A stretch of DNA of 64,000 bases from Poseidonibacter lekithochrous (GTDB lineage: Bacteria > Campylobacterota > Campylobacteria > Campylobacterales > Arcobacteraceae): contig NZ_CP054052.1 of NCBI RefSeq assembly GCF_013283835.1, positions 2,666,001 to 2,730,000 of the forward strand, read 5' to 3'. Under the pieces are notes generated by a model that was not told the origin of the DNA, made no database searches, and was given only the letters and a program-made list of their open reading frames with translations. Of this stretch, positions 6,008-32,677 are shown one piece after another; the stretch's first letter is position 1, and each line of letters opens with the position of its first letter. The position numbers were made by a program, and so were the translations under genes.

Positions 6008-9000
6008 TTAATCTCCCTCGTCCGGATCTAATGGTAACACTGTCATATTTTTAGGTTTTACCATCCAGAAGTTTCTAATTTCTGCTCTAAAGTTTTCTAA
6101 AATATTTTGAGCTGCATCACTTTCAGTTTCATGAACATAATCTAAAAGTAATCTTTTCAGATATAGTCTTTCTCTTTCAGTATCATCAGTATCGATTCTA
6201 ACTGCTTCAATTAACTCTTGGTTCATTTTATCAACAAATGATTTTTCTGGATCATAAACAAATCCAAGTCCACCAGTCATACCAGCACCGAAGTTAATTC
6301 CAGTATTTCCTAAGATTACTACAATTCCACCTGTCATATATTCACAAGCATTATCTCCAGTACCTTCAACTACAGAAATACATCCTGAGTTTCTTACACC
6401 AAATCTTTCACCTACAGATGCTCTAATGTATAATTTACCACCAGTAGCTCCATATAAACAAGTATTACCACCACCAGCAAATTCCTGACCTTGGTGCATT
6501 GGATTAATGATGATTTTACCACCATTCATTCCCTTACCAACATAATCATTAGCAGCGCCATCTAAATGTAAATTCATACCCTTAGAAAGGAAAGCACCAA
6601 ATGATTGACCAGCAATACCTTTTAGGTTAATATTAATTGAGTTATCTGGTAATCCAGCGTCACCATAGAATCTAGCAACTTCACCAGAAATTAATGCACC
6701 AAATGATCTATTTAAGTTAGTAATTTCAGTATTAACTTTAATTGGAGAGTTTGGATTCTCAATTGTTTTATGAACTTTCTTTAATAATTCTTTTTCATAT
6801 CTATTATCATCAAATGGATCATTTGAAGGTTTTTGACAAGTATCAATACCGTCAATTTTTCTTAAAATATTTTGGAAGTCAAATTTTTGTGCAAATTTGT
6901 CATCAATTACTTTTAATAAATCAGATCTACCTACAATTTCTTCAATTGTTGAGTATCCTAATTCAGCTAAGATTTCTCTAACTTCTTCAGCAATAAATGT
7001 GAAGTAAGAAATTAATCTCTCAACAGTTCCAGTAAAGTGACCTCTTAAATCTTCATCTTGAGTTGCAACACCAACAGAACATTTGTTAGTATGACAAATT
7101 CTTAAGATTTTACATCCAAGTAGTGTTAATGCAGCAGTTCCGAATGCATAAGATTCAGCACCAAGCATAGCAGCTTTAACAACATCTAAACCAGTTTTTA
7201 ATCCACCATCAGTTTGAACGTGAACGAACTCTCTTAAGTGGTTAGCTTTTAAGGCATTATGAGCTTCTGAAAGACCCATTTCCCAAGAGTTACCAGCATG
7301 TTTTAATGAAGTTAATGGAGCAGCACCTGTTCCACCATCTCCACCTGAGATAATAATTTTATCAGCATATGCTTTAGCAACACCTGCTGCAATTGTTCCA
7401 ACACCAATAGAAGATACTAATTTAACAGTAATTCTTGCTTGAGTATTTACTTGTTTTAAATCGTAGATTAGCTGAGCTAAATCTTCAATAGAGTAAATAT
7501 CATGATGTGGTGGAGGCGAAATTAGAGTAACACCAGCAACTGTATGTCTTAAAGACGCAATTAAAGGAGTTACTTTGTGACCTGGTAATTGACCACCTTC
7601 ACCTGGTTTTGCACCTTGTGCAACTTTAATTTGTAATTCTTCTGCTGATCTTAAGTAACCTGGAGTTACACCAAATCTACCAGAAGCAATTTGTTTAATT
7701 TTAGAATTTTTTAAAGTACCAAATCTTTTTGGATCTTCACCACCCTCACCTGAGTTTGATGCTCCACCAATTGTATTCATAGCCATCGCCATTGCTTCGT
7801 GAGCTTCTGGAGAAATAGAACCACATGACATAGCAGCTGATGCAAATCTTTTAAATACTTCTTCTTTTGATTCTACTTCATCAATAGAAATAGATTTTTT
7901 ATCAGAATTAAATTCAAAGAAATCTCTAATGAATTTCTTATCTCTATTTCTAACTAATTGTTTTAAACCTTCGAAATCAGTAATTTCTTCTTTTTTCGTA
8001 GCAGATTTATTATGCATAGCTTTAGTAGTAGCTGGACCATAATCGTGATATTCACCACCATTTAAGTACTTGTAGAAACCACCTAAATCTAATGGGAACA
8101 TATGATTATCATCATGATATGCATTAAAGTGAGATTTTTCAATTCTTTCTTCAATATCTTCGTAATCTAAACCAGCTAAATCACTATGTGCATCAGGGAA
8201 ACAAGCAGTTACGATTTCATCAGATAATCCAATAGCATCGAATAAACCAGAGTTTCTATATGAAGCAATAGTACAAATACCCATTTTAGACATAATCTTA
8301 AGAAGACCAGCGTTTAATGCTTTTTGAGTATTTTTAAGAACTCTTTGCATTTCGTACTTAGATAATTCTTTTCTTTCATATAATGCAACAGTTGTAGCAT
8401 ACATCATATATGGATACATTGCAGTTGCACCGAATCCTAATAATACTGCTGCCATATGTGGATCATAAACTTCACCAGTTACAGGTACAATTGATACATA
8501 ATGTCTTACTTCTTGTTTTAATAACTCTTGGTTAATATAACCAACAGCCATTGCCATTGGAATAAGCTTAGAAGTTTCATTTACTGCTCTATCATCTAAA
8601 ATAACAACAGAAACACCATTATCTTTAACAGCTTTTACAACATTATCACAAAGTGATTTTAATGATGCTCTTAAATCAGATTTAAATGTAGTTGAGAAGA
8701 TTTGGTTTTTGTAGTATTCATCATATCTTGGAGATTTTTCATCACCAAATGATACTAATACATCAAATTTTTCTTTCATTAAAACAGGAGATGCAACTTT
8801 TAATCTTTTTGCATACTCTGGCTTTTCATCAAGAATATTGTGAATTTGACCAAATCCAGTCTCTAAAGACATTACAACTTTTTCTCTATATGGATCAATT
8901 GGAGGATTTGTAACTTGAGCAAACTTTTGTTTGAAGAAGTCAGTAAAGTTTCTATTAACTTGTGAGAAACATGCTAATGGAGTATCATCACCCATAGAAC

Positions 9001-10447
9001 CTACAGGTTCTTTACCATCTTTAGCCATTGGCTCAATCATTTGATCAATTGCTTCATAAGTAATATTGAAATATTTTTGTTTCTTTTCTAACTCTTCAAA
9101 TTTATAATCAGAAGTGTTTAAGAATGAATCTTCAATATACTCTTGTAAGTAATCCATATCTTCATTTAACCACTTAGAGTAGTATTGAGAAGATTTAAGA
9201 TAATCATTAATATCATCTTCTTTTAAAACTTTTCCGTGTTTAAGGTCAAGAGCAATCATTTCACCTGATTGTAATCTTCCTCGCTCTAAAATGTTTTCTT
9301 CCTCTAAAGATAAAGTACCATACTCAGAAGTAATGTATAATTTGTGATCTTTAGTGATTACATATTTAGATGGTCTTAAACCATTTCTGTCAATTAAACA
9401 TCCAATATGTCTACCATCTGTTAAAGAAACAGCAGCAGGACCATCCCATGCTTCCATTGCAGTTGCAGTGTATTCATAGAATGCTCTTAAATCTGGATCC
9501 ATATGAGGTGCATTTTGCCAAGGTGCAGGAACTAATGATCTTGCAGCTTTAAAGAAATCAACACCATTTGCTAACATGAATTCAAACATATTATCTAATG
9601 AAGCAGAATCTGAAGAACCAGTTTGAAGAATTGGTAATAATCTTGCAATTTCTTCATCTGAGAAAATTTCTGATTGAAGTTGTTCAGATTTAATTTCAAC
9701 ATTAAATCTATTTGCTTCAACTGAGTTAATTTCACCATTATGTGCGATTGCTCTAAACGGTTGTGCTAATCTCCATTGAGGTAGAGTATTCGTTGAGAAT
9801 CTTTGGTGAAATAATGAGAACGAGATTTTAAAGTCGTCATCTCTTAAGTCAACATAAAAATGCTTAATATGCGTTGGCATAATAAGCCCTTTGTACGCAA
9901 TTACTTTAGATGAGAACGTAGGAATATAAAAATCTTTCTTATCTATTAGTTTATGCTCACACTCTTTTCTTGTTAAGTAAAGCATTGCATCAAATCTCTT
10001 TGATGACATTAAAGTATTAGGAACGACAAATACTTGAATAATATTTGGTAATGAATCTAATGCTTGTTGTCCAAGAGCATCAGTATCAACTGGAACATTT
10101 CTAGTTAATACAACTTTTAAATCATTAAGTTCACAAAACTCTTTAAAAGTATCGATATCTTCAAGATCTTTTGCAAAGATCATTGCTACACCATAAGTTT
10201 CAGGTAAATCAATACCATCTTTTGTAGCTACTTTTCTCATAAATTGATCTGGCATAGATAAAAGTAATCCTGAACCATCTCCAGTTTTACCATCTGCTGC
10301 CACTGCACCTCTGTGCATCATTCTTTCTAGTGAAGTTATTGCATCTTCTAAATTTTTATGACTTGGTCTGTTTTTCATATCAGCAACAAGACCGAAACCA
10401 CAGTTGTCTTTAAAAGAAGTTAGTAAGTCTAAATTACAACCCATCAT
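6008..10447 (-). CDS. gltB: Glutamate synthase large subunit
   Basis: 1479-residue alpha subunit. The N-terminal Ntn-type glutaminase domain begins at C16 (DNCGFGLVADM) after a propeptide of about 15 residues expected to be removed. The central and FMN domains include SCGSISPEAH, the FMN/2-oxoglutarate region with IISGGDGGTGAAP, and the 3Fe-4S site CKILRICHTNKCSVGVATQ. The C-terminal GXGXG beta-helix domain shows GNTCLYGATGGKLY and GGIVVILGNTGINFGAGMTGG. Length is typical. Two adjacent ATGs (10447 and 10444) are possible starts after AAAGGA; the second has the better spacing. It is first in a long operon reading toward LPS genes. Confidence 0.96.
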   Translation of the reverse strand: MMGCNLDLLTSFKDNCGFGLVADMKNRPSHKNLEDAITSLERMMHRGAVAADGKTGDGSGLLLSMPDQFMRKVATKDGIDLPETYGVAMIFAKDLEDIDTFKEFCELNDLKVVLTRNVPVDTDALGQQALDSLPNIIQVFVVPNTLMSSKRFDAMLYLTRKECEHKLIDKKDFYIPTFSSKVIAYKGLIMPTHIKHFYVDLRDDDFKISFSLFHQRFSTNTLPQWRLAQPFRAIAHNGEINSVEANRFNVEIKSEQLQSEIFSDEEIARLLPILQTGSSDSASLDNMFEFMLANGVDFFKAARSLVPAPWQNAPHMDPDLRAFYEYTATAMEAWDGPAAVSLTDGRHIGCLIDRNGLRPSKYVITKDHKLYITSEYGTLSLEEENILERGRLQSGEMIALDLKHGKVLKEDDINDYLKSSQYYSKWLNEDMDYLQEYIEDSFLNTSDYKFEELEKKQKYFNITYEAIDQMIEPMAKDGKEPVGSMGDDTPLACFSQVNRNFTDFFKQKFAQVTNPPIDPYREKVVMSLETGFGQIHNILDEKPEYAKRLKVASPVLMKEKFDVLVSFGDEKSPRYDEYYKNQIFSTTFKSDLRASLKSLCDNVVKAVKDNGVSVVILDDRAVNETSKLIPMAMAVGYINQELLKQEVRHYVSIVPVTGEVYDPHMAAVLLGFGATAMYPYMMYATTVALYERKELSKYEMQRVLKNTQKALNAGLLKIMSKMGICTIASYRNSGLFDAIGLSDEIVTACFPDAHSDLAGLDYEDIEERIEKSHFNAYHDDNHMFPLDLGGFYKYLNGGEYHDYGPATTKAMHNKSATKKEEITDFEGLKQLVRNRDKKFIRDFFEFNSDKKSISIDEVESKEEVFKRFASAAMSCGSISPEAHEAMAMAMNTIGGASNSGEGGEDPKRFGTLKNSKIKQIASGRFGVTPGYLRSAEELQIKVAQGAKPGEGGQLPGHKVTPLIASLRHTVAGVTLISPPPHHDIYSIEDLAQLIYDLKQVNTQARITVKLVSSIGVGTIAAGVAKAYADKIIISGGDGGTGAAPLTSLKHAGNSWEMGLSEAHNALKANHLREFVHVQTDGGLKTGLDVVKAAMLGAESYAFGTAALTLLGCKILRICHTNKCSVGVATQDEDLRGHFTGTVERLISYFTFIAEEVREILAELGYSTIEEIVGRSDLLKVIDDKFAQKFDFQNILRKIDGIDTCQKPSNDPFDDNRYEKELLKKVHKTIENPNSPIKVNTEITNLNRSFGALISGEVARFYGDAGLPDNSININLKGIAGQSFGAFLSKGMNLHLDGAANDYVGKGMNGGKIIINPMHQGQEFAGGGNTCLYGATGGKLYIRASVGERFGVRNSGCISVVEGTGDNACEYMTGGIVVILGNTGINFGAGMTGGLGFVYDPEKSFVDKMNQELIEAVRIDTDDTERERLYLKRLLLDYVHETESDAAQNILENFRAEIRNFWMVKPKNMTVLPLDPDEGD

Positions 10448-16291: not shown

Positions 16292-16297
16292 TATAAT
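16292..16297 (+). promoter_or_regulatory. TATAAT -10-like element just before the polymerase gene
   Basis: TATAAT lies only 9 bases before the ATG at 16307. If used, transcription would begin within a few bases of the start codon. No Shine-Dalgarno sequence is visible between it and the ATG, so the message may be leaderless. Confidence 0.35.
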
Positions 16298-16306
16298 ACT
16301 CGAACT

Positions 16307-18253
16307 ATGAAATACTACATTTATGATTTAGAAACCTTTCCCAATATCTTCACTTGTGTTATACAAAACTCACAAACAAAAGAGTTACGAGTATTTGAAC
16401 TAAGCACTAGAAAAAATGATTTAGATAAATTTCTAAAGACATTAGAATGGCTGAGTAAAAATGAGAAAGTATTAGTTGGATACAACAATCTAAACTTTGA
16501 TTACGCAGTATTACAATTCATCTATAAAAATGCAAAGAATTATGAAATAAAAGAACTGGTTTACCAAATATTTTTTTTTGCAGATGGACTTATTAAAAAT
16601 AATATCCTTTACAGAGAAGATAAAAGTAGTATAAAAATAAATCAACTAGACCTTATGAAAGTTCATAACTTTGATTATAAAGCTACACGAGTTAGTCTAA
16701 AAGTATTAGAAGTAAATATGTGTATGGATTCTATTGAGGATTTAAACTTCACTATTGGTGAGAATTTAAAAGTAGAAGAATTCGATGATTTAATCAAATA
16801 CAATAAACACGATGTTGAAGCAACACTATTATTTTTTGATCACTCTATTGAAGCTATTGAATTTAGAGAAGAATTAGGCACAAAATACAAAGAGAATATG
16901 CTCAACTACAGTGATACAAAGATAGGTAAACGATACTTTATTCGAAACCTAGAAGAAAAGCTTGGGAAAAATGTATGTTATATAAATGGTAAACCAAAAC
17001 AAACTATTAGAAACTACTTGAACTTTGGTGAGATTATTTTTGATTATATTAGTTTTGAAACGCCAGAGTTTCAAAGTCTACTAAAGTATCTGAAAAAGCA
17101 GTATTCAAACTCTATGAATGAAGTCTTTTCTAATATTCCAAAAGAAAAATTAGAAGAGCTTAGTTCTTTTTGTAATCTTAATGCCAAAAAAGAAGCTCAT
17201 TCCTTACATCTAAACTATCAAGGTTTTTCTTTCTATTTAGGAACTGGTGGATTACATGGAAGTGTAGAGAGTAAGTTCTATGATAAAAATGATGAGTATC
17301 TAATCATCGATGTTGATGTAGCTAGTTATTATCCCTCTATTGTAATTCAAAACAGACTTTATCCAGAGCATTTAGGTGAGGAGTTTGTTGATATATATAA
17401 AGAGATTAGGGATTTGAGATTCTCATATAAAAAAGGTACATCTCAAAACAAAATGCTAAAACTAGCTCTTAACTCAGCTTATGGAGATACAAATAATCAA
17501 TTCAGTCCTTTTTATGATTATAAAATGACACTTGATATTACTCTAAATGGGCAGTTAATGTTATGTATGTTAGCTGAGAAACTAATGCAAATAGAAACAG
17601 TATCTTTAATACAAGCAAACACAGATGGTCTTACTTTTGCAATTGCAAAAAAAGACAAGGCAATATATGAGAATATTTCTAAAAATTGGCAAGAGTTCAC
17701 AGGATTAGAACTAGAAGAAATCATATATGAAAAACTGTGGATTAGAGATGTAAATAACTATGTAGCTCTAAAAGAAGATGGCAAAGCTAAAAAAATAGGT
17801 GCTTATAAATACGACCTAGCATGGAATCAAAACCACTCTTCCCTAGTAGTTCAAAAAGCAGTAGAAGCTCATCTTTTAGAGGGTATTTCAATTGAAGACT
17901 TTGTATACAATCATAGAAATAAATATGACTTTTTATTGAACTTCAAAGCTACTAGAAATATAGATTTAGTCTTAGAAAAAGTATATTCATTACAGAAAAC
18001 TTATTTGCCATTGTCTAATACTATTAGATATTTTATTAGTAAAAATGGACTACCTCTAAAAAAGATTCTTCCAGCTTTAAATAAAGATTCAGAACAAAGA
18101 GTCATAGGAATAAATGTAGGTTATAAAGTAGAGCTTTGTAATAATATAAATGACTTTTCTTATGAGTTCTTGGATTTTGATTATTATGTAAAAGAGGCTT
18201 ATAAACTAATAGAACCTTTTAGACAAAAACAAGAATCACTTTTTGATTTCTAA
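16307..18253 (+). CDS. Orphan family B DNA polymerase with 3'-5' exonuclease
   Basis: 648-residue family B polymerase. The N-terminal DEDD exonuclease shows Exo I YDLETFPN (D7, E9), Exo II VGYNNLNFDY and Exo III YNKHDVEAT at about residues 160-170. The polymerase has motif A DVDVASYYPSIV at about 336-347, motif B KLALNSAYGD at about 385-394, and a motif C QANTDGLTF at about 436 where N replaces the first D of the usual DTD. A KxY-like segment NNYVALKEDG follows. It is shorter than E. coli Pol II (783), with compact fingers (about 45 residues between motifs A and B). Such proteins are common in phages and mobile elements; no terminal protein or phage neighbour is seen. Confidence 0.85.
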   Translation: MKYYIYDLETFPNIFTCVIQNSQTKELRVFELSTRKNDLDKFLKTLEWLSKNEKVLVGYNNLNFDYAVLQFIYKNAKNYEIKELVYQIFFFADGLIKNNILYREDKSSIKINQLDLMKVHNFDYKATRVSLKVLEVNMCMDSIEDLNFTIGENLKVEEFDDLIKYNKHDVEATLLFFDHSIEAIEFREELGTKYKENMLNYSDTKIGKRYFIRNLEEKLGKNVCYINGKPKQTIRNYLNFGEIIFDYISFETPEFQSLLKYLKKQYSNSMNEVFSNIPKEKLEELSSFCNLNAKKEAHSLHLNYQGFSFYLGTGGLHGSVESKFYDKNDEYLIIDVDVASYYPSIVIQNRLYPEHLGEEFVDIYKEIRDLRFSYKKGTSQNKMLKLALNSAYGDTNNQFSPFYDYKMTLDITLNGQLMLCMLAEKLMQIETVSLIQANTDGLTFAIAKKDKAIYENISKNWQEFTGLELEEIIYEKLWIRDVNNYVALKEDGKAKKIGAYKYDLAWNQNHSSLVVQKAVEAHLLEGISIEDFVYNHRNKYDFLLNFKATRNIDLVLEKVYSLQKTYLPLSNTIRYFISKNGLPLKKILPALNKDSEQRVIGINVGYKVELCNNINDFSYEFLDFDYYVKEAYKLIEPFRQKQESLFDF

Positions 18254-27327: not shown

Positions 27328-27657
27328 TTATTTCTTAATATCAATATGTTTTTTTAAAATATCTGTAAGTTCATCGTCACTTAAATTTTCTTTTTCAGTT
27401 TTTGAGTAAATTGATATTAAAACAATTTTATTTTCAATTTGTTTATAAATGATTATTCTAAAACCACCACTTTTACCTGTTGGTATTGATGAGTTTTTTA
27501 CTCTTTTTTTGAATAGATTAAAACCTAAATAAACACCTAAATCATTTTTTGTTTCAATTTCATCAACTGCTTGTTTTAAATCAGGTTTTAAAAGTTTGAA
27601 TTTTTTTGATAGTTTTTTAGCTTCTTTGAGAAAACTGTCACTATATTCAATAATCAC
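27328..27657 (-). CDS. RelE/ParE-family toxin
   Basis: 109-residue basic protein with the RelE/ParE fold pattern: YSDSFLKEAKKLSKKFKLL at the start, then SGGFRIIIYKQIENKIVLISIYSKTEKENL. The arginine in GGFRII and the YSKTEKENL end match YoeB/HigB/RelE-like ribosome-dependent mRNA interferases. It overlaps the upstream antitoxin by 4 bases, the normal coupling of such pairs. The antitoxin is transcribed first, which allows joint autoregulation. Confidence 0.82.
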   Translation of the reverse strand: MIIEYSDSFLKEAKKLSKKFKLLKPDLKQAVDEIETKNDLGVYLGFNLFKKRVKNSSIPTGKSGGFRIIIYKQIENKIVLISIYSKTEKENLSDDELTDILKKHIDIKK

Positions 27658-27935
27658 AATTCATCCCATAATTTATCAATAGAATTAGTTTTACCCTCTT
27701 CTACATCTTTTAATCCAGCATCAATAGATTTCAAAATCTTTTTTGCTTCTACTTCTTTTAGGGCTTCTTTCATAGCTTCATACTCATCTTTTGAGATAAT
27801 AACTGCTTCTACTTTGTTGTTTTTAAGTACAGCTAATTTATCTACTGTATTATCTTTGATTTGAGATAGATATGTACCAAATTTTTTTGCAAGTTCAGAT
27901 GATGATATAAGTTCATTTGTTGAATAAGTTACCAT
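27654..27935 (-). CDS. Phd/YefM-family antitoxin
   Basis: 93-residue protein whose N-terminal half follows the Phd/YefM pattern: SSSELAKKFGTYLSQI, KLAVLKNNKVEAVIISKDEYEAM, then an acidic helical tail EVEEGK..DKLWDEL that would cover the toxin active site. The N-terminal half normally binds the operon promoter. It has its own upstream A+T-rich stretch (27936-28040) between it and the ORF6N gene, a likely promoter and operator. Confidence 0.82.
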   Translation of the reverse strand: MVTYSTNELISSSELAKKFGTYLSQIKDNTVDKLAVLKNNKVEAVIISKDEYEAMKEALKEVEAKKILKSIDAGLKDVEEGKTNSIDKLWDEL

Positions 27936-28040
27936 ATATTTTCCTTATAATTATCCGTATAATTTTACTATTAATATTATAGCATAAAATTTAATCATAT
28001 ACTTTTTTCAATAATATAGATATTTTTATTTTTGATTAAT

Positions 28041-28967
28041 TTAGACAACTTTACCTAACCTAGTTAAGATATCAAAAGATTCAATATCCAATTTCGAAAA
28101 AGCAAACCATTTTTTACCCAAATCTTTTAAACTAGCACCTATATGATAGACATCTTTATTATCAATAATTAAAAATCTATCATGAGAACTATTAAATTGT
28201 TTTATTTTAATATCGGGATATTGTGAATTGTGTTTTTCTAAATCTTGGAGTAATTGCTTTGATATGTTTTTTGTATATATTGCACATTTTACATCTGTAT
28301 TTCTTTTGGACAAAAGTGTAAGTACACTATCATCACAATAGTTATCAATGAGTACAATTGATTGTTTTGAAGTTCTTATAAGATCAGATATAAATACATA
28401 AGCATCATACATCTGACCATCATAAAATATACCTTGTTTTGGTTTTAGTGATTTATCTTCAAGAGCATTAAAAATTCTGTCAAATTTCTCATCTATTTCA
28501 ATTTTGTCTTTGATTCTTAGAGTTTCTATATTTTCTAATCGTTGAAAGATATATGAATTATCAGAGAGAACTTTTCTCATGTTTACAAAACTATTTATAA
28601 TCTTGATACTTACTTCAATTGCTACTTTACTTTTTAGAATAGCACTTAACATAGAAACACCTTGTTCTGTGAAGACATAAGGTAAATACCTTCTTCCTCC
28701 ATGTTCTAATGTCACAATTTGTGACCTTAAAGAATCATCAGAACTTGAGGTCACAATTTGTGACCTCAAGTTTTGATACTCTTCATCTGTTAATTGAAAC
28801 CTAAAGTTTTCAGGAAATCTTTCACTATTTCTTTTAACTGCTTGATTAAATACTTTTGTTTCAACTTCATAAAGCTCTGCTAAATCTCTATCTAGCATCA
28901 CGGATAATCCTCTTATTGTAAAGATTTTATTTTTGATTTTATTTTCATTTATTAATAATTCATTCAT
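28041..28967 (-). CDS. ORF6N-domain DNA-binding protein with C-terminal PLD-like domain
   Basis: 308-residue protein. Residues 8-105 form an ORF6N domain: IFTIRGLSVMLDRDLAELY, VFNQAVKRNSERFPENFRF and RRYLPYVFTEQGVSMLSAIL are its classical segments. These domains are frequent in phage and island proteins. A coiled region follows, and residues about 190-300 resemble a degenerate phospholipase D domain with SHDRFLIIDNKDVYHIGASL in place of HxKx4D. The heptad LRSQIVT occurs twice in tandem (about residues 67-88), encoded by palindromic DNA. It probably acts as a regulator or DNA-end sensor; function unproven. Confidence 0.82.
   Translation of the reverse strand: MNELLINENKIKNKIFTIRGLSVMLDRDLAELYEVETKVFNQAVKRNSERFPENFRFQLTDEEYQNLRSQIVTSSSDDSLRSQIVTLEHGGRRYLPYVFTEQGVSMLSAILKSKVAIEVSIKIINSFVNMRKVLSDNSYIFQRLENIETLRIKDKIEIDEKFDRIFNALEDKSLKPKQGIFYDGQMYDAYVFISDLIRTSKQSIVLIDNYCDDSVLTLLSKRNTDVKCAIYTKNISKQLLQDLEKHNSQYPDIKIKQFNSSHDRFLIIDNKDVYHIGASLKDLGKKWFAFSKLDIESFDILTRLGKVV
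28711..28770. repeat. Tandem palindromes inside the ORF6N gene
   Basis: GTCACAATTTGTGAC occurs at 28711-28725 and again at 28751-28765. The second copy is the core of a 27-base perfect inverted repeat at 28744-28770 with 13-base arms (CTTGAGGTCACAA and its complement) around a single T. Both copies encode part of the repeated LRSQIVT heptad on the minus strand. They might be an internal operator or simply an in-frame duplication. Confidence 0.8.
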
Positions 28968-29116
28968 GTAAAACTCCCTAAAAACTCTCTCTTAGCTTTG
29001 AGAATTATGTCATAATTTTTTATTATTATTTAAAAACATTACAAACTGTCATGATTTTAAAGTAATAGAAAATCTTTATATATAATCCAAGAAATAAAAT
29101 ATTCTTAGGAGTTACA

Positions 29117-30466
29117 ATGCAATTAATAATAGGATCACAAGTTAAACTTATAGATGGAGCTATTGAAAAAATCTTCCCTTATGGTGAAGTGTTGCAATTG
29201 TTAAGTAAATTTAAGAATATATGTACTGATATAAAATGGAACGTAAATGTACCCGCTAGAGATAAGTGTCAGATTATAGAAAATCAAGAAACAATTAATA
29301 TCAAAAACTTTAAGGCAAGAGATTTTCAACAAGCTTGTGTTGATAAATTTACAAGAACTACACTTACAGGTTATATTTTTGCTCCTACTGGCTCTGGTAA
29401 AACAAATATAGCTGCATATTTAATTGCAAAAAGAAATATAAGGACACTATTTATTGTTCCTAAATATGATTTAGTAAAACAAACCAAAAAAAGATTTCAA
29501 GATATTTTAGATATTGATCCATCAATGATAGGTGAGCTTAGCTCTCACAAGAAAGAGTTTGGAGCTCCTATTCTAATCACTACATGGCAATCATTAAATA
29601 AAGAAGCTACATTACAAAGAGTTAAAGAAGATAAATACTCACAGATCATTTGTGATGAGATGCATAAAGCTAGTGCAGATGTTTATTATGATGTTGTATC
29701 ATCAATTCCAGCCATGTATAAACACGGTCTTACTGCGACACCATATAGAAATAATATCAAAAACGAACAAAGACTTTACGATTTAGTTGGAAATGAGATT
29801 GCAAGTGTAAATATACTAGATTTATATAAACATGGATTTTTAGTTCAACCAAATATAAAGTTTAAAAATACACATTATAAAATCAATATAGATCAAGAAT
29901 ATTTGAGATCATTGGATTTTAATATAAAACTAGGAATGCTTAAAAAAAATATTGATAAATCCAAAAAGAGAAAAGAGTTCATACTAAATGATATTAAAAG
30001 AGCTCTAGAGCTTGAAAGACGTGAGTCTAATTCTAATCAATCTGTAATTTTAATGAATACCTTAGAGCTAGGACAAATGTTAAAAGAAGAGTTATCTGCT
30101 GATTATAATGTATTATATATTGATGCAAATACAAAAGCAAAAGAAAGAAATGAAATATTTTCTGATTTAACAGAGAATAAAATCACGGATTATGTTCTAA
30201 TAGGAACTTCTAAACTTCTAGGAGAAGGTACAGATATTCCCTCTATTAAAAATGTATTTTGTGCAAGTCCTGCTTATCCTCCTTTTGAAGATACAGCACG
30301 TTTACAACAAATCATAGGAAGAGCTATGAGACCATTCCCAAATAAGAATTCTGCAAATATAATTATCTACAATGATGAAACAACAGGCTGGATAAATAAA
30401 AAGAAAAATGAAGTTTTAGATATTGTTATTAATAAGGTTAAGCCTATTATAAATCATTCCAAATAG
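29117..30466 (+). CDS. SF2 DEAD/DEAH-type helicase, phage UvsW-like
   Basis: 449-residue superfamily 2 helicase. Motif Q/RxFQ region KARDFQQACVDKF precedes Walker A APTGSGKT (residues about 94-101), motif II DEMH at about 179-182, motif III TATP near 207, motif IV/V LGEGTDIP, and motif VI QQIIGRAMRPF near 400. Size and layout resemble phage T4 UvsW-type branch-migration helicases more than chromosomal RecG or UvrB. TTAGGAG precedes the ATG. It stands alone on the plus strand in an island of minus-strand genes and overlaps the next gene tail to tail by 20 bases. Confidence 0.82.
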   Translation: MQLIIGSQVKLIDGAIEKIFPYGEVLQLLSKFKNICTDIKWNVNVPARDKCQIIENQETINIKNFKARDFQQACVDKFTRTTLTGYIFAPTGSGKTNIAAYLIAKRNIRTLFIVPKYDLVKQTKKRFQDILDIDPSMIGELSSHKKEFGAPILITTWQSLNKEATLQRVKEDKYSQIICDEMHKASADVYYDVVSSIPAMYKHGLTATPYRNNIKNEQRLYDLVGNEIASVNILDLYKHGFLVQPNIKFKNTHYKINIDQEYLRSLDFNIKLGMLKKNIDKSKKRKEFILNDIKRALELERRESNSNQSVILMNTLELGQMLKEELSADYNVLYIDANTKAKERNEIFSDLTENKITDYVLIGTSKLLGEGTDIPSIKNVFCASPAYPPFEDTARLQQIIGRAMRPFPNKNSANIIIYNDETTGWINKKKNEVLDIVINKVKPIINHSK

Positions 30467-31195: not shown

Positions 31196-32677
31196 CTAAT
31201 GTTCACTTTTTAATTTTTCTAATATCTTCACCATCGCTAAAGTATCTAACTTACAATACTCAATAAGTGATGCTCTCATTTTGCTTTTACTTACCTCATC
31301 AAGCTTTCCTAGGTTTGCAAAGGCATTCATAGCTTGGCTTCCATTTTGTACTCCATCTAGTTCTTTGTATGCTTTGGTAAACTCTGGTACTAAGGCTGGT
31401 AATACATACTTGATAGAATAAGATCCATTCATTGATGGAGTTACATAGTATTTCTTCTGAAAAGGTATCATTAGGTCTTTCATATTTTCATTTATACTTA
31501 GAAGATGGGTACTAAGCTCTGGGTATAAGTCTGCTAGTCTTTTGATAACACTTTTTTCAAAACTCATGTTATATGCTAATACGTTCACGTCACTTGGTAT
31601 ATGCTCACACAAACTTTTGGCTATTTGCTCTCTTGGGTCTATACCATCTTTAGCTAAATACTCTTTGTGTTCTAATGTGCCATCTTCATGCTCACAATGA
31701 AGTGAGTATTGAAATGGTATTTGCTGATATGGACTAATACCTTTGAATTCTGGTATAGCTTGCTGAAATGTCTCAAAATCTAAGTGATAGATAGGATAAG
31801 TCAAAGTATCTACAAACTCTTTGATTTTTTCTTTATTTATGAAAGTCTCTTTTGATTTGTAGTTTTCTACTGCTTGGGATTGATTTGCAGTCATGGCAAA
31901 GTCATCTGGTATATCTTCTATCTTTGTTATACCTTGTGAATATAACTCTACTTGTTTTTTACTTCCTAGATTGAAGATATTAAAAATAGAGTATTCAGGT
32001 ATAGTTCTTTGAGTTTTCCAACAGTAATCTTTGGCATCACATACATATGGATTATGACAGTGTTTTCCTATATCAATATTTGGTTCATTTATTTTATTTT
32101 CTAGTATAGTTCCAAACTCTTTTAGAATAGTAGGAATATTCTCTTGTAAGACTAGAACTTCATCACTAACATCTGCAATAGTAAAAAGCTCATCTAACTC
32201 TAAATCATCACCTCTTACATAAGAGCTATTGATATGTACTACATTTGCCGATACTATTGAAAATCCAAGTTGTTCTAATACATAGTATTGAATAGAAGTA
32301 TCATGTACATATATATCTTTTACACTTGATGAGCTTTTTACTTCGTATATGGATACACTACCATCTTCATGTATTTCTAATACATCTACTAGGACTAAAA
32401 TACCATTGAAATTAAAAGTAGCTTCATATATATACTTGATACCATCATCTATGTATTTGGCTGTTTGCTTTATCATCTCATCGAAGTTTGTAGAATATGG
32501 TATTTCTACTCCATTTGGAAAAAGCTTGCAAGCTAAATCCCCTACTACGTTTCCAGTGTCAAATCTAGCTAAGGCTGAATCATCTGGTAAAGTTAATACT
32601 TCTTTATTGTACTTTTTTAACCAAAGTGCTTTTTGGCATTGGATGCCTTTTGTGTAGAGGGATTTAGATAGGTTCAT
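31196..32677 (-). CDS. DUF2779 protein: Fe-S PD-(D/E)XK nuclease joined to a DEDD exonuclease-like domain
   Basis: 493-residue protein. The N-terminal half looks like a RecB/Cas4-type nuclease: LYTKGIQCQKALWLKKY with C14, acidic E85, D98 (LVDVLEI), E112-V-K114, and the triple cysteine set C207, C213, C219 (CHNPYVCDAKDYC). C14 plus these three match the split four-cysteine Fe-S pattern of Cas4 and AddB. The C-terminal half (from about 290) starts YHLDFETFQ (D299, E301), continues with LAYNMSFEKSVIK and ends YCKLDTLAM, like a DEDD RNase H-fold exonuclease; this is the DUF2779 region. Likely DNA repair or defence nuclease; activity not known. Confidence 0.78.
   Translation of the reverse strand: MNLSKSLYTKGIQCQKALWLKKYNKEVLTLPDDSALARFDTGNVVGDLACKLFPNGVEIPYSTNFDEMIKQTAKYIDDGIKYIYEATFNFNGILVLVDVLEIHEDGSVSIYEVKSSSSVKDIYVHDTSIQYYVLEQLGFSIVSANVVHINSSYVRGDDLELDELFTIADVSDEVLVLQENIPTILKEFGTILENKINEPNIDIGKHCHNPYVCDAKDYCWKTQRTIPEYSIFNIFNLGSKKQVELYSQGITKIEDIPDDFAMTANQSQAVENYKSKETFINKEKIKEFVDTLTYPIYHLDFETFQQAIPEFKGISPYQQIPFQYSLHCEHEDGTLEHKEYLAKDGIDPREQIAKSLCEHIPSDVNVLAYNMSFEKSVIKRLADLYPELSTHLLSINENMKDLMIPFQKKYYVTPSMNGSYSIKYVLPALVPEFTKAYKELDGVQNGSQAMNAFANLGKLDEVSKSKMRASLIEYCKLDTLAMVKILEKLKSEH

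What the first reader, a model, noticed from the sequence alone, without database searches (positions are those of the whole stretch)
16307..18253. Orphan compact family B DNA polymerase with NTD in motif C
Seen: intact exonuclease motifs and motifs A and B, with motif C reading NTD in place of the usual DTD, in a 648-residue protein next to housekeeping genes. The gene has no SD and a TATAAT 9 bases before the ATG, hinting at a leaderless message. Known: such compact B polymerases are mostly phage or plasmid genes. Inference: a domesticated mobile-element polymerase, perhaps for translesion synthesis or repair.
Basis: partly seen in the sequence, partly recalled or inferred. Interest (0 to 1): 0.55.

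Follow-up and report, generated by a model that had tools for sequence, protein, structure and literature searches.

The report
Phage-derived DNA polymerase kept by bacteria
A marine bacterial lineage carries in its chromosome a DNA-copying enzyme of phage type that it has inherited and protected from change for a long time, and the enzyme ends in a short tail that looks made to dock on the cell's own replication clamp.

Summary
In detail: window 16307-18253 (+) encodes a 648-aa proofreading family B DNA polymerase without an N-terminal domain (AlphaFold2 pLDDT 92.5; PDB matches). NTD in motif C is not an oddity: it is invariant in all 44 relatives aligned and in 80 of 80 of the nearest viral relatives. 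It signs a phage polymerase family (PHROG 1252, E 2e-165). The gene is not an orphan. It is present in all 6 near-complete genomes of the genus (Poseidonibacter, inferred), in 7 of 10 overall and in 10 of 104 of the family. It sits among ordinary genes, evolves under strong purifying selection (dN/dS 0.07-0.10), and forms one clade apart from all phage sequences aligned (at most 46% identity). New here: 9 of 9 host proteins end in a predicted-disordered tail, ESLFDF or NLFDY, which resembles a sliding-clamp-binding motif; 0 of 80 nearest viral relatives have it. An SF2 helicase gene is often adjacent. Best reading: a phage replicase domesticated as a proofreading accessory polymerase recruited by the host clamp. 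Clamp binding and the repair role are inferred.

The parts
16307..18253 (+). Family B DNA polymerase of phage (PHROG 1252) type, 648 aa, proofreading exonuclease plus polymerase, no N-terminal domain
16292..16297 (+). TATAAT, -10-like element 9 nt before the ATG; candidate leaderless promoter
   Evidence: exact in 5 of 8 host loci, no SD in 8 of 8
17618..17626 (+). Motif C, N438-T439-D440, the family signature NTDG
18233..18250 (+). C-terminal tail ESLFDF (residues 643-648), putative sliding-clamp-binding motif, predicted disordered
29117..30466 (+). SF2 helicase (ResIII plus Helicase_C, PHROG 16, UvsW-like); adjacent to polB in five genus genomes, 10.9 kb away here
29036..29058 (+). Conserved element ACATTACAAACTGTCATGATTTT upstream of the helicase; the only exact match in this genome

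Best explanation
This is a phage replicase of the PHROG 1252 (NTDG) family that entered the chromosome of an ancestor of Poseidonibacter and its near relatives and became a resident cellular gene. It most likely works as a proofreading accessory polymerase. The flexible C-terminal tail (xESLFDF) is held by the pocket of the host's single DnaN clamp. The clamp places the enzyme on primer-templates at gaps or stalled forks, where it synthesises DNA accurately and hands back to Pol III, much as Pol II does in other bacteria. It is probably made at a low level from a leaderless message. Shown by computation: family, fold, intact active sites, restricted distribution, purifying selection, a single host clade, and a host-specific conserved tail. 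Inferred: polymerase activity, clamp binding, expression level, and the repair or restart role.
For: Family: PHROG 1252 E 2.1e-165; 951 of 50,697 phage records matched, all under 60% identity. Fold: the model aligns from residue 1 onto residue 135 of KOD and 150 of E. coli Pol II. Cellular status: found in 6 of 6 genus genomes of about 100% completeness and 7 of 10 overall, and in 5 of 397 genomes drawn from the phylum. Flanked by ordinary genes, in rearranged but overlapping neighbourhoods. dN/dS 0.067-0.099 against the window gene, with dS 0.84-1.01, versus 0.12-0.13 for gltB, about 0.22 for selO and about 0.20 for tesA. Host clade 100/100, with branch order matching pairwise gltB distances where gltB was compared. 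Tail: 9 of 9 host proteins; in the 8 that read ESLFDF the codons differ only synonymously while all four linker positions before it change amino acids. 0 of 80 nearest viral relatives carry it. Residues 641-648 have pLDDT below 50. The same genome's DnaE has KQTTNSLFGDSE and its Y-family polymerase YTYNLFEYEGD. A signature ZXSLF was proposed for the H. pylori clamp (PMC4976356, passages and Conclusion read). The genome has one DnaN gene and no Pfam DNA_pol_B protein.
Against: No binding or activity data exist. The glutamine of the consensus clamp motif is kept in only 5 of 9 tails. The genome's DNA ligase shows no such motif, so the clade's clamp motif is not well calibrated. The tail could have come with the donor phage, because three relatives outside the host clade end in QxxLF-type tails. 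One host-clade member (G102) stands at 63% identity in a different locus, the only match in its genus g19, so one vertical origin is not proven. All genus genomes but one also have a Y-family polymerase (9 of 10), so there is no obvious gap to fill.
Confidence: 0.6

Rival explanations
1. The gene has been captured more than once from an unsampled lineage of Arcobacteraceae phages whose polymerases already bore the clamp tail; it serves, or served, those phages or related elements rather than the cell.
For: G102 carries a 63% relative at an unrelated locus; two phage-like relatives in G024 of the same family end in INQLTLF and INQMKLF and crAss cr114_1 in RQLELF, so tails of this kind occur in the wider viral family.
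Against: No viral sequence closer than 46% among the sequences aligned; the gene is in 6 of 6 near-complete genus genomes; its distances follow gltB; no phage genes beside it in the neighbourhoods read.
Confidence: 0.2
2. The polymerase and the neighbouring SF2 helicase form a two-gene module, for instance for break repair, fork restart or defence, and neither works alone.
For: The two genes are adjacent, about 80-110 bp apart, in G001, G003, G004, G006 and G008; both lie in the window; six of the seven genus genomes with polB hold the helicase.
Against: polB occurs without the orthologous helicase in G002, G011 and G102, and the helicase without polB in G023, G122, G060, G025 and G017. Helicase dS is only 0.40-0.46 against the window copy, even for another genus, so it has a different, more mobile history. 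Promoters differ: the helicase has an SD and its own conserved element. No PADLOC hit for the polymerase.
Confidence: 0.1
3. It is a translesion polymerase.
For: Bacterial B-family enzymes such as Pol II act in translesion synthesis (PMC12926913, passages read); leaderless messages in C. jejuni include DNA repair genes (PMC3847290, passages read).
Against: Exonuclease residues are intact and invariant, and Y-family polymerases are already present in 9 of 10 genus genomes. Neither excludes the role.
Confidence: 0.07
4. A decaying prophage remnant without function.
For: Phage ancestry.
Against: Open frame in all complete copies, dN/dS 0.05-0.10 in all pairs compared, invariant catalytic residues.
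Confidence: 0.03

Closest known systems
PHROG 1252 phage DNA polymerases (e.g. Klebsiella phage KP13-27, Salmonella phage Sasha, Marinobacter phage PS6, Rheinheimera Barbavirus)
   Same: Full-length similarity of about 37-45%, same exonuclease and polymerase motifs, NTDG in motif C
   Different: The window protein is chromosomal, fixed in its genus, and has the extra C-terminal ESLFDF tail
crAss-like PolB group and bacterial G3 group (Kazlauskas et al. 2020, PMC7544198; passages and sections 13 and 17 read, figures not held)
   Same: A crAss polymerase (cr114_1) lies in the same tree and shares NTDG; the paper proposes viral sources for bacterial G1-G3
   Different: G3 has a glutamate in motif C (PMC7544198) and an N-terminal domain (PMC12926913); this protein has neither
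E. coli DNA polymerase II (bacterial G1)
   Same: Exonuclease plus polymerase fold (Z 14.4 to 3maq, 482 residues aligned, rmsd 7.0); clamp motif, QLGLF in Pol II (PMC3716654, passages read)
   Different: No N-terminal domain, no ExoII GWN, no match to PF00136
Minor bacterial PolB groups lacking the N-terminal domain (Timinskas et al. 2026, PMC12926913; section 18 and passages read)
   Same: Lack of N-terminal domain and, for most, an intact proofreader; this protein may belong to one of them
   Different: The text read names no lineage, no fixation in a genus and no clamp tail for them; their sequence lists are in supplements that I could not open

Membership tests
Family B DNA polymerase | ExoI-III and motifs A, B, C with catalytic acidic residues | tested here: met
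Family B DNA polymerase | Fold of exonuclease plus palm, fingers and thumb | tested here: met
   (best rows Z 15.7, about 480 of 648 residues aligned, rmsd 6.0-6.5)
PHROG 1252 phage DNA polymerase | Profile match over the whole length | tested here: met
   E 2.1e-165, residues 2-643, profile 53-656 of 663
Pol II (bacterial G1) | Match to Pfam DNA_pol_B (PF00136) | tested here: not met
   protein; 0 of 10 genomes; E. coli control rings
Pol II (bacterial G1) | ExoII motif GWN (definition from PMC7544198) | tested here: not met
   sequence: GYNNLNFD
Bacterial G3 PolB | Conserved glutamate in motif C and an N-terminal domain | tested here: not met
   motif C is QANTDGL; model residue 1 aligns with residue 135 of KOD
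crAss-like PolB group | Membership by the group's own profile | tested here: inconclusive
   cr114_1 is in the same tree on a long branch; the group's profile was not at hand
piPolB or protein-primed PolB | Terminal-protein-region insertions and clade membership | not tested
   no reference sequences were put in the tree
Sliding-clamp client | Clamp-binding short motif in a flexible region | tested here: inconclusive
   motif-like tail conserved and predicted disordered, but Q kept in only 5 of 9
Sliding-clamp client | Physical binding to DnaN | not testable with these tools
   needs a binding assay or a complex prediction
Resident (domesticated) cellular gene | Fixed in a lineage, purifying selection, no phage neighbourhood, vertical pattern | tested here: met
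   G102 leaves a second capture open

The most novel reading that the evidence does not exclude
Poseidonibacter and close relatives hold a further, independently acquired kind of cellular bacterial PolB beside the G1, G2 and G3 groups: an NTDG phage replicase that gained a tail for the host clamp on the way to becoming a proofreading accessory polymerase, possibly working with a mobile UvsW-like helicase.
Probability: 0.4. Interest if true: 0.65.

Novelty: new variant of a known kind. Interest (0 to 1): 0.5.

Why it matters
It was proposed that bacterial B-family polymerases came from viruses in separate events (PMC7544198). Here is a case confined to one genus and its near relatives, young enough for phage relatives to align end to end, with a specific and testable change: a short tail that could plug a phage enzyme into the bacterial replisome. 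If the tail binds DnaN, it shows how a viral replicase is put under host control.

Tried and rejected
Rejected: that NTD marks a damaged or adapted active site (invariant in 44 of 44 aligned and 80 of 80 nearest viral relatives). Rejected: decay. Tried: the helicases of Marinobacter phage PS6 and of phiTHAF39, which lie near their polymerases, as sources of the window helicase; no meaningful similarity. The phage records listed for the helicase are 24-29% identical (40 of 1712 records listed), and a viral scan gave one 23% hit, so its origin stays open. Tried: a regulon for the helicase's upstream element; one exact site and one with two mismatches in the genome. Tried: true absence of polB in G005, G007 and G009; all are 86-88% complete. 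The G009 contig with the best match ends at the edge of this region, the G007 helicase fragment starts a contig, and G005 has the helicase beside a PIF1-like gene without polB between. I cannot tell loss from gaps. A first AlphaFold2 model on 12 sequences was poor (pLDDT 63.2) and was not used. The fold lists showed no phi29-type or piPolB entry among the rows printed, which says nothing against them. DNA ligase of this genome has no SLF motif.

Literature: searches. None of the listings showed a paper on this polymerase in Poseidonibacter or on a clamp tail in this family; supplements were not open to me, and most subscription papers are not in the library. That the second aspartate of motif C is the metal ligand, while the first is less critical, is recalled and comes from no call.

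Limits: the tree holds 39 rows, of 44 collected; five partial or duplicate viral rows were dropped (L058, L060, L061, L063, L064). A second tree of 122 rows (FastTree; L063 and L064 dropped) also kept the 8 host rows together (support 1.0). The 80 viral relatives are the best 80 kept by the tool of 589 found; they include near-copies, and one of them (L210) is the same contig as L051. dN/dS is pairwise Nei-Gojobori, on 6 of the host copies (window, G001, G003, G004, G006, G011). gltB was compared by pairwise distance, not by a tree.

Full report
The observation. Window 16307-18253 (+) is an open frame of 648 codons. The exonuclease residues D7, E9, D65, Y165 and D169, motif A D337, motif B K385 and motif C N438-T439-D440 are present and invariant in a 61-sequence alignment. 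Upstream, TATAAT stands 9 nt before the ATG and there is no Shine-Dalgarno-like stretch. The neighbours match DSBA, SelO, GDSL lipase, ABC ATPase and FtsX permease.

What family it is. Pfam's DNA_pol_B model does not see it, nor do NCBIfam or PADLOC. PHROG 1252, a phage DNA polymerase family, matches residues 2-643 with E 2.1e-165. In 50,697 phage records 951 match, 699 of them over at least 80% of the query, and none reaches 60% identity. Motif C reads NTDG in all 44 proteins aligned, from Klebsiella, Vibrio, Rhizobium and crAss-like phages to plasmids, and in all 80 nearest viral relatives. So NTD is the family's signature, not a peculiarity of this gene. An AlphaFold2 model on 61 sequences has mean pLDDT 92.5 and pTM 0.88. 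Its best PDB matches are archaeal and eukaryotic B polymerases (Z 15.7, 477-484 residues, rmsd 6.0-6.5), and model residue 1 falls on residue 135 of KOD: the usual N-terminal domain is missing.

Who has it. The window lies in a 3.57-Mb single-contig genome. Named contigs place its genus as Poseidonibacter (P. lekithochrous 89%, P. ostreae 87%; my inference). The gene is in 7 of 10 genus genomes, and in all 6 of about 100% completeness; the three without it are 86-88% complete, and an 85% complete one has it split over two contig ends. In the family 10 of 104 genomes match, including G011 of another genus (84%), G102 (63%) and two distant phage-like copies in G024 (33%). In a draw of 397 genomes from the phylum 5 match.

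It behaves as a cellular gene. The surroundings are ordinary genes, rearranged between species but drawn from an overlapping set (SelO, a PIF1-like helicase, a carboxypeptidase-like protein, an MsrA-like protein, GDSL lipase and ABC genes; the PIF1, carboxypeptidase and MsrA names are my reading of the sequences). Against the window copy, dN/dS is 0.067-0.099 with dS 0.84-1.01. gltB has 0.123-0.130 with dS 0.54-0.60, selO about 0.22, tesA about 0.20. So the polymerase has diverged about as long as its neighbours and its protein has changed less than most of them. The eight complete host proteins form one clade (100/100) in a tree of 39 rows, standing among phage sequences, and their order (G102, G011, window, the rest) is the order of gltB distances where gltB was compared. 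A tree of 122 rows keeps the clade. The closest viral proteins aligned are 46% identical.

The tail. The host proteins run about ten residues past the point where the close phage relatives stop. Eight read ESLFDF; G102 reads NLFDYLD. In the eight, the six motif codons vary only synonymously, while all four linker positions before them change amino acids. Residues 641-648 are predicted disordered (pLDDT below 50). Under the patterns used ([SNTD]LF[DEG] or QxxLF type near the end), 0 of 80 nearest viral relatives have such a tail. Of the 36 non-host rows of the first set, three end in a QxxLF-type tail: crAss cr114_1 (RQLELF) and the two G024 copies (INQLTLF, INQMKLF); one more, RHph_Y5A, has QDLF eight residues before its end. 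Clamp-binding motifs have the consensus QL(S/D)LF or QxxL(x)F (PMC4976356, passages), Pol II has QLGLF (PMC3716654, passages), and for the H. pylori clamp ZXSLF was proposed (PMC4976356 Conclusion). In the window's genome DnaE has KQTTNSLFGDSE and the Y-family polymerase YTYNLFEYEGD, whereas DNA ligase has no such motif. There is one DnaN gene. In 17,249 residues of 47 window ORFs the pattern [SN]LF[DEG] occurs 4 times and at a C-terminus only here. Three phage relatives (RHEph04, Guyu, Seurat) have their polymerase next to a gene annotated as a clamp or polymerase beta subunit, so clamp use is in keeping with the family.

The helicase. An SF2 helicase (ResIII, Helicase_C, PHROG 16) follows polB directly in G001, G003, G004, G006 and G008 and lies 10.9 kb downstream in the window. 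Full-length orthologues (at least 75%) occur in 12 of 104 family genomes, six of them with polB. Its dS against the window copy is only 0.40-0.46, even for another genus, so it has moved between lineages more recently than the polymerase. It has an SD and a conserved upstream element, unlike polB. I treat it as a possible partner, not a proven one.

Mechanism. The parts suggest an accessory, proofreading polymerase brought to DNA by the host clamp, for gap filling or fork restart, like Pol II. Activity, clamp binding and biological role are inferred. A leaderless message fits 5 of 8 loci well; in C. jejuni leaderless messages include DNA repair genes (PMC3847290, passages). Translesion synthesis is neither supported nor excluded; 9 of 10 genus genomes have a Y-family polymerase.

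Comparison with what is known. Kazlauskas et al. 2020 (PMC7544198) describe crAss-like phage polymerases and propose viral sources for bacterial G1-G3. Timinskas et al. 2026 (PMC12926913) find eight bacterial B-family groups, the minor ones without an N-terminal domain. This protein may fall in one of those minor groups; their lists were not open to me. By tested features it is not Pol II and not G3. What I did not find in the texts searched is a genus-wide fixed member with a clamp-like tail.

Noticed in passing
window 29036-29058 and the same place upstream of helicase orthologues in L026, L104, L027, L028, L100, L096, L097, L098, L099: A block like ACATTRCAAANTGTCATNNTTTT is conserved upstream of the helicase gene across several genera; it contains an imperfect palindrome and has one exact site in the genome.
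   Followed up: partly
window 29117-30466 versus L096:7403-8743: The helicase is 91% identical, dS 0.40, to that of a different genus whose gltB pieces are only 70-77% identical: recent horizontal exchange.
   Followed up: partly
L023 and L024 (G024, same family): Two phage-like loci with distant PHROG 1252-type polymerases (33%) whose ends, INQLTLF and INQMKLF, match the clamp-motif consensus closely.
   Followed up: no
L021, L022 (G008), L118 (G007): Some metagenome assemblies break inside or beside polB or the helicase: G008 in the middle of polB on both contigs, G007 inside the helicase. Cause unknown.
   Followed up: no
window 31196-32677 (-), also L027 and L102: A DUF2779 protein lies near the helicase or polB in three genomes; possible nuclease (recalled), link untested.
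   Followed up: no
window 27328-28967 (-): RelE/Phd toxin-antitoxin pair and an ORF6N protein just upstream of the helicase, where other species have polB; may mark the insertion or rearrangement that separated the two genes.
   Followed up: no
L101 (G102) polB, 7563-9551: Motif B carries an extra glycine (NSAGYGDT) and the gene starts at TTG close behind an EamA-like transporter gene (my reading), at a locus unlike that of the other hosts.
   Followed up: partly
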